39,317 bases of DNA from Gemmatimonadaceae bacterium (GTDB lineage Bacteria > Gemmatimonadota > Gemmatimonadetes > Gemmatimonadales > Gemmatimonadaceae). The stretch covers positions 1 to 39,317 of the forward strand of contig JAICJQ010000014.1 in assembly GCA_025928335.1 (NCBI GenBank). The letters are read 5' to 3'. The translations under genes and the position numbers were made by a program. The notes under the pieces were generated by a model, which saw nothing but the letters and a program-made list of their open reading frames with translations, made no database searches and was not told where the DNA came from. Shown here in pieces: positions 14,022 to 33,268 of this stretch; position 1 is the first letter of the stretch; the number at the start of each line of letters is the position of its first letter.

Positions 14022-14909
14022 ATGGCCAGAAGCAGTCGTAGCGATTCGAGCCGAGACACCACATCGCGTCAGGCAAACTCACGGCGACCGTCGAACAGCT
14101 CTGCGAGCACTCGCAACGCGTCGACCAACTCCGCGAGTACTCGGAACGCGACAACGGGCGGGACACAGAGTACGAACCGTGGTAGCCAGACTCGAGCAAC
14201 ATCGAGCACCGCGGAGCCGACGACTCGCGGAACTGCGACGTCGCCGACCAGCAGCGTGACGGGGCAGGGGAATCAAGCGAGCCAATCCGGTGTGCAGGAT
14301 CAGGAACGCTCGATCGAAACGAGGAACGAAACGGACCGCAGCCAAGGAAACCAGCGCGATACCAGCGACGGCGGACTTTCGCGGCGGCAGGATACGTCTC
14401 CTGTATTCGGCGGCTCGAGCGGGATGGGGATGAATCCGTTCGCCGCGATGCGACGGTGGTCCGAGGACATGGATCGGCTGTTCCAGGACTTTGGATTTGG
14501 CCAACTCGGTTTCGGATCTTCGCCATTCCGCGACATCGGTTCGTTCGGCGGCGGCCGTGGGTCCGGCCAAAGCGAAAGCAGCGGCTGGTCTCCGCAGGTG
14601 GAAGCGTTTCAGCGCGGCGATAATTTCGTCATCCGTGCCGATCTTCCCGGGATGAAGAAGGACGATGTCACGGTCGAGGTCGAGAACAACGTTCTCACCA
14701 TCTCCGGTGAGCGAAACGACGAGCGCGAAGAAAATCGCGACGGCTTCTACCGGAGCGAACGCAGCTACGGGCAGTTCTATCGGGCGATACCGCTTCCAGA
14801 AGGGGTGAGCGCGGATCAGTGCGACGCGACCTTCCAGAACGGCGTGCTCGAGGTCTCGCTGAAAGCGCCGAAGCAACGCGAGAAGTCGAGGCAGATCCCG
14901 ATTCGCTGA
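14022..14909 (+). CDS. small heat-shock protein (Hsp20) with long low-complexity N-terminus
   Basis: 295 residues from ATG 14022, set by GGGGGAGGAG at 14007-14016. The alpha-crystallin domain spans about 189-295: WSPQVEAFQRGDNFVIRADL, PGMKKDDVTVEVENN, LTISGER, YGQFYRAIPLPEG and the closing NGVLEVSLKAP with a final RQIPIR, which carries the IxI tail motif. Residues 1 to about 125 are almost entirely Ser, Thr, Asn, Gln, Arg and Gly, with STRNAS/STRNAT repeats, and residues 130-180 are Gly/Phe/Ser-rich. Typical bacterial Hsp20s are 140-160 residues, so this N-terminal extension doubles the length. The protein should bind unfolding clients without ATP. No CIRCE element is visible. Confidence 0.9.
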   Translation: MARSSRSDSSRDTTSRQANSRRPSNSSASTRNASTNSASTRNATTGGTQSTNRGSQTRATSSTAEPTTRGTATSPTSSVTGQGNQASQSGVQDQERSIETRNETDRSQGNQRDTSDGGLSRRQDTSPVFGGSSGMGMNPFAAMRRWSEDMDRLFQDFGFGQLGFGSSPFRDIGSFGGGRGSGQSESSGWSPQVEAFQRGDNFVIRADLPGMKKDDVTVEVENNVLTISGERNDEREENRDGFYRSERSYGQFYRAIPLPEGVSADQCDATFQNGVLEVSLKAPKQREKSRQIPIR

Positions 14910-30724: not shown

Positions 30725-30759
30725 GGATACGAACGAACTTAGCAGCTAGGATGGATCAC

Positions 30760-30987
30760 ATGCCCGGACCGGTCACGCGCGAGGTCAAGAAGTACCTGAT
30801 CCAGCTCATCGTCGGCGTCGTGGTGCTCGACGCGATCATGTTGGGATTGTATTACGGGTTTTCGGTGTCGCTGCGGCCCGAACGTACACAGCAGTCGTTC
30901 GTTGCTGTCTGGGTCGTGCTGACGCTGATCGTCGTGGCGACGCGAATGAGGAAGATCAGGCAGGCGAGGATACGCCGATCAGGTTGA
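30760..30987 (+). CDS. small membrane protein with two helices
   Basis: 75 residues from ATG 30760, preceded by AGGATGGA at a proper distance; another ATG lies at 30751. Two hydrophobic helices, YLIQLIVGVVVLDAIMLGLYYGF and FVAVWVVLTLIVVATRM, are separated by a short polar loop, and the C-terminus is very basic (RKIRQARIRRSG). No family is recognised. The gene diverges from the HAD phosphatase with 35 bp between starts and ends seven bases before the long mirrored repeat element begins. Confidence 0.6.
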   Translation: MPGPVTREVKKYLIQLIVGVVVLDAIMLGLYYGFSVSLRPERTQQSFVAVWVVLTLIVVATRMRKIRQARIRRSG

Positions 30988-30994
30988 GAAGGCA

Positions 30995-31495
30995 TAGACT
31001 GCGCAAGTAGACGGCGCGAGTAGACGGCGCTTGTGGACGACGCTGGGGAACGCCGCAGGTGAACGGCGCTTTGAAAACGTCGCTGTTAGACAGCGCTTGT
31101 GAACAGCGCCCTATAAACGGCGCCGGTGAACAGCGCCCTATAAACGGCGCCGGTGAACAGCGCCCCTATAAACGGCGCCGGTGAACAGCGCGGCGCTGCC
31201 GGCGAAAAAAATGCTACGCGTTTTTCTTCCGCCGCCGCGTTTCGAGGCCCGACATCCCATGCGCAGCACTCGTGAGCCGCCGTATTCGGCCCATGAGCTT
31301 TGCGAACAACTCTCTCGGCCGCCCGATAGTGCCGCCCGGGCGAGTCACTCGCGAGCTCCGCACCGCGCGGCGCCTTCAGAGCGTGGTTCACAAGCGCTGT
31401 CTATATGCGCCTTTTCCGAGGCGCGGTGCACTAGCGCCGTTCCTCAGCGTCGTCCCCAAGCGCTGTCTACTCGCGCCTTTTATGTGCGCCGTCTA
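30995..31495. repeat. mirrored array of 13-nt units (long imperfect inverted repeat)
   Basis: The left arm, 30995-31099, consists of eight units of 13 nt (one of 14) with consensus TAGACGGCGCTTG. The right arm, 31391-31495, consists of eight units in reverse orientation (CAAGCGCCGTCTA), including one of 14 nt at the mirrored position. Aligned by hand unit by unit, 84 of 105 bases pair; unit 31087-31099 and 31391-31403 match perfectly. The array continues inward from the left arm to about 31191. The inner loop (about 31200-31377) is non-repetitive and encodes nothing convincing. Confidence 0.85.
31100..31181 (+). repeat. three tandem copies of a 27-nt unit inside the mirrored array
   Basis: 31100-31126 and 31127-31153 are identical; 31154-31181 differs by one extra C. 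The unit consists of two of the 13-nt words, TGAACAGCGCCC and TATAAACGGCGCCGG, so it is a recent local duplication within the array. Confidence 0.9.
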
Positions 31496-31537
31496 TGACG
31501 TAAAGCGCCTCCTTACCGCCGAAAGAAGCGTCGAAAC

Positions 31538-31571
31538 AAAAAAGCGCCGGTCCACAAGAGTGGACCGGCGC
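31538..31571 (-). terminator. strong intrinsic terminator of the cold-shock gene
   Basis: On the minus strand GCGCCGGTCCAC, a four-base TCTT loop and GTGGACCGGCGC form a perfect 12-pair stem followed by six T. It lies 20 bp after the cold-shock stop codon, giving a monocistronic message. Confidence 0.95.
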
Positions 31572-31590
31572 CTTCTTTCGAAGTCAGCCT

Positions 31591-31806
31591 TTAGCGGCCG
31601 ATCTTGACGACGTTCTCGGCCGCGGGGCCCTTGGCACCCTGGACGATGTCGAACTCAACGCGCTCACCCTCGGCGAGCGTGCGGAAGCCACCGCCCTGAA
31701 TCGCGGAATGATGGACGAAGCAGTCCTTCTGACCACCTTCGGGCGTAATAAAGCCAAAGCCCTTCGCGTCATTGAACCACTTCACGGTGCCGGTCGTACG
31801 AGCCAT
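31591..31806 (-). CDS. cspA: cold-shock protein (CspA family)
   Basis: 71 residues, one cold-shock domain. [20 protein letters not shown] carries the RNP1 motif KGFGFI, and DCFVHHSAI the RNP2 motif; the chain ends [10 protein letters not shown] as in most members. It binds single-stranded RNA and DNA and acts as RNA chaperone. TAGGAG in front of the ATG is a good ribosome-binding site. The upstream leader contains a terminator-like hairpin (31943-31974), which would fit regulation at the level of the 5' untranslated region, as known for cspA of other bacteria. Confidence 0.97.
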
Positions 31807-32479: not shown

Positions 32480-32691
32480 TGGCTCGCTGGGTGATCGGGC
32501 TCGTACTCGGTGTCATCATGGTCGCGATCGGATTGTTCGTCGCGGTCAGACCACTCTGGACGCACGACGGCGTGTTGCTCGGCTCGCGCGCCTTGGATTT
32601 CCTGTTCGCGATCGTGTTTATGGTGCGCGGAGCCGTGAATGTGAGGACCGCGCTGAACCGGCGAGCGAACGCGCTTGCGGCGAGCCGATGA
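32479..32691 (+). CDS. small membrane protein with two helices
   Basis: 70 residues from ATG 32479. Two hydrophobic helices, WVIGLVLGVIMVAIGLFVAV and LDFLFAIVFMVRGAVNV, flank a short loop with RPLWTHDGVL. The short basic tail is RTALNRRANALAASR. It is translationally coupled to the preceding gene by a TGATG overlap. No family is recognised; such proteins often associate with larger membrane complexes. Confidence 0.65.
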   Translation: MARWVIGLVLGVIMVAIGLFVAVRPLWTHDGVLLGSRALDFLFAIVFMVRGAVNVRTALNRRANALAASR

Positions 32692-32734
32692 GCCCGGGCC
32701 GTTTGCTAGATTGTCCGCGACTCGAATCCCGCCA

Positions 32735-33268
32735 ATGGTGTTTTTCAAGCGAAAAGAGAAAGCCCCCACCGAACCCCAACGACTCGATTGGCGACTCCTC
32801 GAGCGCGGCGCAATCGCGCTCTACTTCAAGTCGTCTATCCTGTCGGCAGACCTGGGTTGGTTTCGTCAAGCGAAATACGTTGTCCACGAGATGAACGGTG
32901 CCGGTTGGGAGACGCCGGCGTCGTTTCACGCCGACGTCCAGCGCGCGTTGTCGTTTCCGGATTACTACGCGAAGAACCTCGCCTCCTGGATCGATTGTCT
33001 GGCGGAACTTCCCGTTCCGGACGACGGCGGCACAGCGCTCGTTTTTCGCCGCTACGATGTTTTCGCCAAGGCGCAGCCGCAGCTGGCGCAGACGGTTCTG
33101 GACAGCATAGAGAGCGCATCACGTCGGTTCTTGCTCACCGGTCGACGATTGCTCGCGCTCGTCCAGTCAGACGACCCTCGGATCCGGTTCGAGCGGGTCG
33201 GCGCCATGCCTGTGACTTGGAACCCGCGAGAATGGCTGGATTCCGAGCGAATCGGCGGACGCGACTGA
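32735..33268 (+). CDS. barstar-like protein
   Basis: 177 residues from ATG 32735. The core, about residues 30-130, follows the barstar fold: AKYVVHEMNGAGWETPASFHADVQRALSFP and DYYAKNLASWIDCLAELP, where the YYxxNLxxxxDCL helix is the part that plugs the RNase active site in barstar itself, then TALVFRRYDVF. It is longer than barstar (about 90 residues), with an extra C-terminal region including a conserved-looking MPVTWNPREWL. A cytoplasmic RNase inhibitor role is suggested by homology, but no barnase-like toxin gene is present near it. The longer frame from 32675 lies over the previous gene and is not preferred. Confidence 0.75.
   Translation: MVFFKRKEKAPTEPQRLDWRLLERGAIALYFKSSILSADLGWFRQAKYVVHEMNGAGWETPASFHADVQRALSFPDYYAKNLASWIDCLAELPVPDDGGTALVFRRYDVFAKAQPQLAQTVLDSIESASRRFLLTGRRLLALVQSDDPRIRFERVGAMPVTWNPREWLDSERIGGRD

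What the first reader, a model, noticed from the sequence alone, without database searches (positions are those of the whole stretch)
30995..31495. Mirror-image arrays of a 13-nt unit upstream of the cold-shock gene
Two arrays of eight units each, exactly 105 bp, face each other across about 290 bp. The unit consensus is TAGACGGCGCTTG on the left and its complement on the right. The register is kept unit by unit: the single 14-nt unit occurs at the same mirrored place (31060-31073 and 31417-31430), unit-specific variants match their mirror partner (e.g. 31034-31046 with 31444-31456, 11 of 13; 31087-31099 with 31391-31403, 13 of 13), and overall 84 of 105 positions pair by hand count. This is not expected from two independent tandem arrays; it implies a single long hairpin that either arose by inverted duplication or is kept by pairing. 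It is not a CRISPR (no spacers), and it lies between genes with no coding capacity that I trust. Possibilities are a structured noncoding RNA, a mobile palindromic element or a DNA cruciform site.
Basis: seen in the sequence. Interest (0 to 1): 0.72.

Follow-up and report, generated by a model that had tools for sequence, protein, structure and literature searches.

The report
Gene-less hairpin element of S23P family
The mirror-image repeat arrays are one dispersed, gene-less copy of a hairpin element whose gene-bearing relatives carry the mysterious four-helix "23S rRNA intervening-sequence protein" between arms that keep changing together, which gives a handle on what that protein and many unexplained short bacterial repeats do.

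Summary
The arrays are real: 84 of 105 positions pair in register; 0 of 5000 unit permutations reach that. They lie between two convergent 3' ends, not upstream of the cold-shock gene. The window copy is one of at least 11 loci of a 13-nt family in this genome. One copy (C263) carries a four-helix-bundle S23P gene (PF05635) between its arms. This looks like a rule for S23P genes: inverted arms enclose 27 of 29 versus 0 of 28 cold-shock genes, 34 of 37 further ones and 53 of the 80 best GTDB loci. Arms are tandem in 79 of 85, mostly period 7; 76 of 79 units differ. At eight orthologous sites the two arms of an element match each other better than their orthologues, while S23P is under purifying selection. 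G-U mismatches are not favoured, so arms seem matched by DNA copying. Best reading: a non-autonomous hairpin element of an S23P-associated class related to rRNA intervening sequences; mobility is supported, the enzyme unknown. Ten searches of an open-access library found no paper linking S23P to mirrored arrays.

The parts
30990..31007 (+). left terminal motif (AGGCATAGACTGCGCAAG; family form GGGCATAAACGGCGCNNG)
   Evidence: pattern hit with 1 mismatch; same end on other copies
30995..31191 (+). left arm: about 14 tandem units of 13 (14) nt; outer 8 pair in register with the right arm
31099..31191 (+). 27-nt higher-order repeat (two units) at the inner end of the left arm, 3.4 copies, 97% matches
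31192..31366 (.). loop of about 175 nt; no Pfam hit in the three ORFs tested that overlap it
31367..31495 (-). right arm: about 10 units, reverse complement of the left
31483..31499 (-). right terminal motif (GTCATAGACGGCGCACA on the minus strand)
30757..30987 (+). small ORF (76 aa) whose stop codon lies 2 nt before the left terminal motif; found by tblastn beside the HAD gene in the 4 congeners that have that gene
31538..31577 (.). inverted repeat with A/T tails: likely terminator of the cold-shock gene, outside the element
   Evidence: I5
31591..31806 (-). cold-shock domain gene, convergent neighbour
   Evidence: Pfam PF00313 E 2.4e-31

Best explanation
The feature is a gene-less (non-autonomous) copy of a palindromic element. 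SHOWN: this genome has at least 11 loci with the same 13-nt unit and/or terminal motif; one of them holds an S23P (23S rRNA-intervening-sequence protein, four-helix bundle) gene between its arms; most S23P genes sampled, in several bacterial phyla, are framed by mirror-image arrays of short tandem units, usually 7 nt; unit sequences nearly always differ between elements, yet the two arms of one element match, unit by unit where the units vary enough to tell (C263, C180, C197); at orthologous sites the two arms of an element resemble each other more than their orthologues. INFERRED: the arms are kept alike by DNA copying from one arm to the other through the hairpin (template switching of the quasipalindrome-correction type, recalled) while slippage adds and removes units; the element is tolerated because it sits at gene 3' ends, often between convergent genes, where its transcript is a hairpin that RNase III could cut as it does rRNA intervening sequences; S23P, a pentamer in its solved relative, acts on the hairpin and helps the class persist or spread, and gene-less copies such as this one ride on it in trans.
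For: Dispersal: tandem-unit pattern 78 hits vs 16 for the reversed control in G000; terminal motif on C224 (window), C90, C183, C158, C234, C263, C113, C101, C45, C50 and, read in the sequence, C262. S23P in C263 between arms that match at 100 of 107. Association: arms above a score of 34 in 27 of 29 S23P genes with full flanks vs 0 of 28 cold-shock genes, Fisher 3e-14 (two S23P loci score exactly 35, so 25 of 29 above 35, which is the 99% point of all 812 mispaired flanks); 33 of 38 when truncated loci are included; 34 of 37 further loci; 53 of the 80 best GTDB loci above that set's own 99% point, 32.0. Cyanobacterial plasmids: 4 of 4 loci fetched, two of them the same element on two plasmids (30 records had a match). 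Viral contigs: 25 of 36 above 34, 16 of 36 above that set's own 99% point of 42.6; several are redundant. Arms tandem in 79 of 85 vs 34 of 1700 shuffles, periods 7 (52), 8 (10), 14 (10). 76 of 79 units distinct; 62 heptamers share a loose consensus GTYAGKN (information 3.27 vs 2.59 +/- 0.12 for permuted units). Concerted turnover: 13 of 13 orthologous pairs at 8 sites have both within-element arm scores above both between-orthologue scores. S23P dN/dS 0.12-0.32 in the 6 of 10 pairs tested whose dS (1.2-1.8) is not saturated; 73 of 75 domain stretches stop-free. Site without element: between the same two genes G004 has under 100 bp with a terminator and no arrays; G003 has there a gene-less mirrored element of another unit, with a second copy elsewhere in G003.
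Against: No transposition event was seen between near-identical genomes; species are far apart and no target-site duplication was seen by eye. 27 of 80 GTDB S23P loci, 5 of 38 and 3 of 37 Gemmatimonadota loci show no arms above threshold. The window copy has no S23P gene, so its dependence on S23P rests on the family link to C263. The 13 orthologous pairs include three trios, so they are 8 sites; one member (L086) has no detectable arms (11 of 11 pairs without it); one pair (L391/L393) is close, 56-57 within vs 37-51 between; and arms were picked as best-matching stretches, which raises within-element scores. Register cannot be seen where units are nearly uniform: L049, L093, L094, L106 score no better in register than shifted by a unit. 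The window's own mismatches favour G-T (7 vs 1 A-C in 105 nt, 8 vs 5 in 131 nt), unlike the pooled test.
Confidence: 0.72

Rival explanations
1. A structured noncoding RNA: selection on RNA base-pairing keeps the arms complementary.
For: Strong RNA folds on both strands; in the window arms alone G-T mismatches exceed A-C 7 to 1; arms stay complementary while differing between orthologues.
Against: Pooled mismatches do not favour G-U: 69 vs 85 A-C in 53 loci and 45 vs 47 in 32 loci, oriented by the S23P gene. No Rfam family at gathering threshold in the window.
Confidence: 0.15
2. A classical MITE: terminal inverted repeats moved in trans by an ordinary transposase in the genome; S23P is a passenger.
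For: Dispersed copies with a shared end motif and variable interior; presence/absence between congeners.
Against: Arms differ in nearly every element (76 of 79 units distinct) and change in concert at fixed sites, unlike ends recognised by a sequence-specific transposase; no target-site duplication seen; in the C263 loop the only recognised protein is S23P. No transposase search of the whole genome was made.
Confidence: 0.15
3. Neutral or regulatory by-product: bidirectional terminators at convergent gene ends that grew by slippage and hairpin template switching, without mobility or S23P involvement.
For: Position between convergent 3' ends in the window; terminator-like hairpins, by eye, in the loops of C113, C234 and both G003 copies; flanking ORFs around S23P elements 23 convergent vs 7 divergent, 41 tandem (rough longest-ORF calls on 71 of 85 loci).
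Against: Shared unit and end motif at scattered loci of one genome; the tight S23P association.
Confidence: 0.1
4. Chance: two independent tandem arrays of the same unit in opposite orientation.
For: Units are similar, so any register pairs partly (permutation mean 65.7 of 105).
Against: 0 of 5000 permutations reach 84.
Confidence: 0.01

Closest known systems
23S rRNA intervening sequences (IVS) with an S23p ORF, e.g. Coxiella burnetii, Leptospira
   Same: Inverted repeats that form a long stem around an S23P gene; in Coxiella tandem heptamers lie upstream of the ORF; function of S23p unknown and mobility only hypothesised (PMC4990558, abstract and passages seen)
   Different: Here the window copy lies outside rRNA genes, at gene ends, with arms made of mirrored tandem arrays, and has no gene; RNase III excision not tested
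GGGAATC heptamer repeats of Xanthomonas (PMC4692102, passages seen)
   Same: Dispersed heptamer arrays, with 70 (Xcc) and 75 (Xac) cases paired in convergent, mirror orientation; an S23P structure, 2gsc/XCC0516, matches the C263 protein and S23p of X. campestris is a homopentamer (PMC4990558)
   Different: The term search in that paper found no S23 or four-helix mention; it treats them as G-quadruplex-forming SSRs. Whether they are gene-less S23P elements is my inference, not tested
TAACTGA heptamer repeats of Beggiatoaceae and cyanobacteria (PMC4679880, passages seen)
   Same: Short, mostly intergenic heptamer arrays, patchily spread, possibly by mobile elements
   Different: Almost all direct (one inverted repeat in 170 sets); no S23 mention found by the term search
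MITEs, REP/REPIN elements (recalled; papers only in search listings)
   Same: Short palindromic dispersed noncoding elements
   Different: End sequences differ from element to element across genomes; interior is a tandem array; no RAYT or transposase was looked for genome-wide
Eukaryotic foldback transposons (e.g. Tm1, PMC3169594, search listing only)
   Same: Long inverted repeats built of sub-repeats (recalled)
   Different: Eukaryotic; no homology tested

Membership tests
23S rRNA intervening sequence (IVS) | inserted in a 23S (or 16S) rRNA gene | tested here: not met
   window element lies between a small ORF and a cold-shock gene; no Rfam hit at gathering threshold in the window
23S rRNA intervening sequence (IVS) | inverted repeats forming a long stem | tested here: met
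   131-nt arms, 78%; folds z -12.9/-14.0
23S rRNA intervening sequence (IVS) | S23P ORF in the loop (present in some IVS) | tested here: not met
   no Pfam hit in ORFs over the window loop; present in family member C263
23S rRNA intervening sequence (IVS) | excised from RNA by RNase III | not testable with these tools
   needs RNA work
S23P-associated mirrored-array element (class described here) | two arms in mirror orientation made of short tandem units | tested here: met
S23P-associated mirrored-array element (class described here) | same unit and ends as an S23P-bearing element of the genome | tested here: met
   C263 shares the unit and the end GGGC(A/G)TARACNGCGC within 1 mismatch
MITE | terminal inverted repeats shared with a transposase-encoding element | not tested
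   no whole-genome transposase search made
MITE | target-site duplication | tested here: inconclusive
   none apparent by eye in the ends listed; element borders uncertain by several nt
CRISPR array | repeats separated by unique spacers | tested here: not met
   units are head to tail without spacers
Retroelement (RT-dependent, by analogy with Avd of DGRs, recalled) | reverse transcriptase in the genome | tested here: not met
   PF00078 in 12 of 59 genomes, 0 matches in G000 (only 79% complete); e.g. G035 with 12 S23P matches and 99% completeness has none

The most novel reading that the evidence does not exclude
S23P genes mark a bacteria-wide class of minimal hairpin elements that encode no known transposase and whose inherited feature is not a sequence but self-complementarity: both arms are continually rewritten together by hairpin-templated copying, at fixed sites and after dispersal, and their gene-less offspring make up many of the unexplained heptamer repeats of bacterial genomes (Xanthomonas GGGAATC, perhaps cyanobacterial and Beggiatoa types). 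S23P would be the protein that handles these hairpins.
Probability: 0.4. Interest if true: 0.92.

Novelty: new variant of a known kind. Interest (0 to 1): 0.78.

Why it matters
S23P/four-helix-bundle proteins are common here (48 of 59 genomes searched, up to 12 domain matches each), have solved relatives, and are said to have no known function (PMC4990558); the idea that rRNA intervening sequences were mobile is there given as a hypothesis only. A common anatomy, gene-less relatives, a site without the element in a congener and arms that co-evolve at orthologous places make that question directly testable, and offer an origin for heptamer tandem repeats that are over-represented in bacteria (PMC4692102).

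Tried and rejected
Independent arrays by chance: rejected by unit permutation. CRISPR: no spacers. RNA-level selection as sole cause: G-U not above A-C; the window alone leans the other way, which I report. Retromobility through a reverse transcriptase in the genome: RVT_1 in only 12 of 59 genomes and none found in G000. Stop codons as the selected content of units: 87 of 130 13-nt units start with a stop codon against 1 TGG, but TGG is expected to be rare from the two positions' own frequencies; at unit level stops exceed permutations weakly on the 5' arm strand (40 of 79 vs 32.9 +/- 3.6; 97 of 3000 reach it) and clearly on the 3' arm strand (36 vs 17.7 +/- 3.2); left open. Comparison of the C263 site with five congeners: the neighbour gene was not kept beside the amidase, uninformative. 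Phages: no S23P match in 50,697 records with one query. The first control had mispaired outliers (273 and more); 4 of the 10 pairs above 34 among 812 were orthologous flanks, which led to the co-evolution test. Pattern hits at L003, L004, L006 and L010-L012 had no mirrored arrays and were not counted as copies; C101 is counted although repeat finder listed nothing there, because its array is read directly and as a chain of 10 units. Two copies of the 11 are minimal: C45 (one unit per arm) and C50 (half).

Full report
1. The observation. The window is contig C224 of a 4.52-Mb, 281-contig draft (G000, 79% complete). Its family relative G020 is very probably Gemmatirosa kalamazoonensis: contig G020:C3 and record NZ_CP007129.1 have the same length and S23P place, hence Gemmatimonadaceae. 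The outer 105 nt of the two arrays match at 84 of 105 positions, and 0 of 5000 permutations of units reach that (mean 65.7, maximum 82). The longest ungapped arms are 131 nt, 78%. The left array is longer (about 14 units, ending in a 27-nt higher-order repeat) than the right (about 10). The cold-shock gene (PF00313) is on the minus strand, so the element lies between two convergent gene ends.

2. A dispersed family. The terminal motif and the tandem pattern (78 hits vs 16 in the reversed control) lead to further copies: C90, C183, C158, C234, C263 and C113 with two arms, C101 and C262 cut by contig starts, C45 with one unit per arm, and C50 with half an element. With the window that is 11 loci. 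Raw hits of the two-mismatch motif do not exceed their control (41 vs 42), so copies were accepted only where arrays or paired ends were seen. With one mismatch G000 has 18 hits vs 7 in the control; its 58 relatives have 0 to 8 hits each, most near their controls, with small excesses (G008 6 vs 0, G054 5 vs 1, G039 3 vs 0) that I did not inspect. So the 13-nt family looks specific to this genome, which is not proven.

3. The gene. From motif to motif the C263 copy is 804 nt, and its loop holds an ORF of 178 aa that matches PF05635 (E 1.4e-21) and TIGR02436 (5.3e-22); its domain matches the solved XCC0516 (2gsc, 5.7e-8). S23p of Xanthomonas campestris is a homopentamer (PMC4990558, passages). 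G000 has nine domain matches; the two on C126 overlap and are taken as one gene, so eight genes. All eight score above 34 for enclosing arms (38 to 179), with differing units.

4. A rule for S23P genes. In this order 33 of 38 S23P loci (8 own, 30 in relatives, one per genome) have enclosing inverted arms above 34, the 99% point of 353 mispaired flanks. So have 34 of 37 further loci, which are the remaining listed ones of ten genomes with congeners, from a capped list. With full flanks only it is 27 of 29 versus 0 of 28 cold-shock genes; two score exactly 35. The arms are tandem arrays in 79 of 85 elements against 34 of 1700 shuffles, with period 7 in 52, 14 in 10, 8 in 10, and 9, 13, 16, 17 or 18 in 7. 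Of 79 units 76 are distinct; 62 heptamers fit a loose consensus GTYAGKN beyond permuted units. The 5' arm has more G than C in 73 of 85. Unit-by-unit register is clear where units vary (C263 0.93 in register vs at most 0.64 shifted; C180 0.86 vs 0.62; C197 0.83 vs 0.61) and not visible where units are nearly uniform (L049, L093, L094, L106).

5. Arms change together. Thirteen pairs of S23P loci at eight sites share both flanks (67-86% identity). In all 13 the two arms of each element resemble each other more than either resembles its orthologue (e.g. 49 and 39 within vs 10 and 17 between for L102/L104; 44 and 58 vs 18 and 10 for L107/L111). L391/L393 is close (57 and 56 vs 51 and 37). L086 has no detectable arms; without it 11 of 11 pairs remain. 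The arms were chosen as best-matching stretches, which favours the within score. S23P is 46-77% identical in these pairs with pN well below pS in the 10 pairs tested; dN/dS is 0.12-0.32 in the six with unsaturated dS. So the protein and the property of being a mirrored array are kept while the sequence of the arms is not. Mismatches within arms show no excess of G-U, which points to copying at DNA level rather than RNA selection; the window's own arms lean to G-T (7 vs 1), too few to decide.

6. Mobility. At the window's site the four congeners with the HAD gene (of five searched) keep HAD, the small ORF and the cold-shock gene. G004 has a short spacer with a terminator-like hairpin and no element; G001 and G005 have another small ORF there (by eye rpsU-like, not tested); G003 has a mirrored gene-less element with a different unit and a terminator-like hairpin in its loop, and a second copy of that element elsewhere. 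In four other genomes whose S23P arms have a GGGA/GGGG-type heptamer, the pattern TAGGGANTAGGGANTAGGGA is dispersed (25, 16, 88 and 72 hits vs 2, 6, 6, 2 in the control). Among the 30 loci returned, which overlap heavily, four distinct places (G059:C33, G060:C7, C163, C202) are mirrored pairs without an S23P motif; others are one-sided. I found no target-site duplication by eye and no event between near-identical genomes. A reverse transcriptase does not seem to be needed (12 of 59 genomes have RVT_1; none found in G000).

7. Reading. The window element works like an rRNA intervening sequence without a gene and outside rRNA: a long hairpin at a gene end. By membership it is not an IVS (not in rRNA) but a gene-less copy of an S23P-associated mirrored-array element. 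The copying mechanism, RNase III processing and the action of S23P are inferred. In the open-access library, ten searches listed no paper that joins S23P with mirrored tandem arrays; only three papers were opened, in passages, and most subscription journals and preprints are not held.

Noticed in passing
window 32675-33268: Barstar-like protein (PF01337, E 8.6e-14); a barnase-type partner was not looked for.
   Followed up: no
L208 (Anabaena sp. 90 plasmid pANA02), 2483-2851: An S23P gene with mirrored heptamer arms (score 56) sits between cas6 and cas4 of a type I-D CRISPR-Cas operon.
   Followed up: partly
L124 (Planctomycetota), around 1501-1812: Very long mirrored heptamer arms around S23P, 247 nt aligned, score 323.
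   Followed up: no
loops of C113 (L015, about 2490-2540), C234 (L020, about 1330-1375), L200, L309: Gene-less elements here carry an intrinsic-terminator-like hairpin in the loop; similar motifs in C113 and C234 (by eye).
   Followed up: partly
G000 contigs C83, C101, C126, C262, C280: Draft contigs end inside such arrays, so short-read assemblies probably break at these elements and undercount them.
   Followed up: no
window 14089-14150: A 30-nt repeat, 2.1 copies, 84% matches, unrelated to the finding.
   Followed up: no
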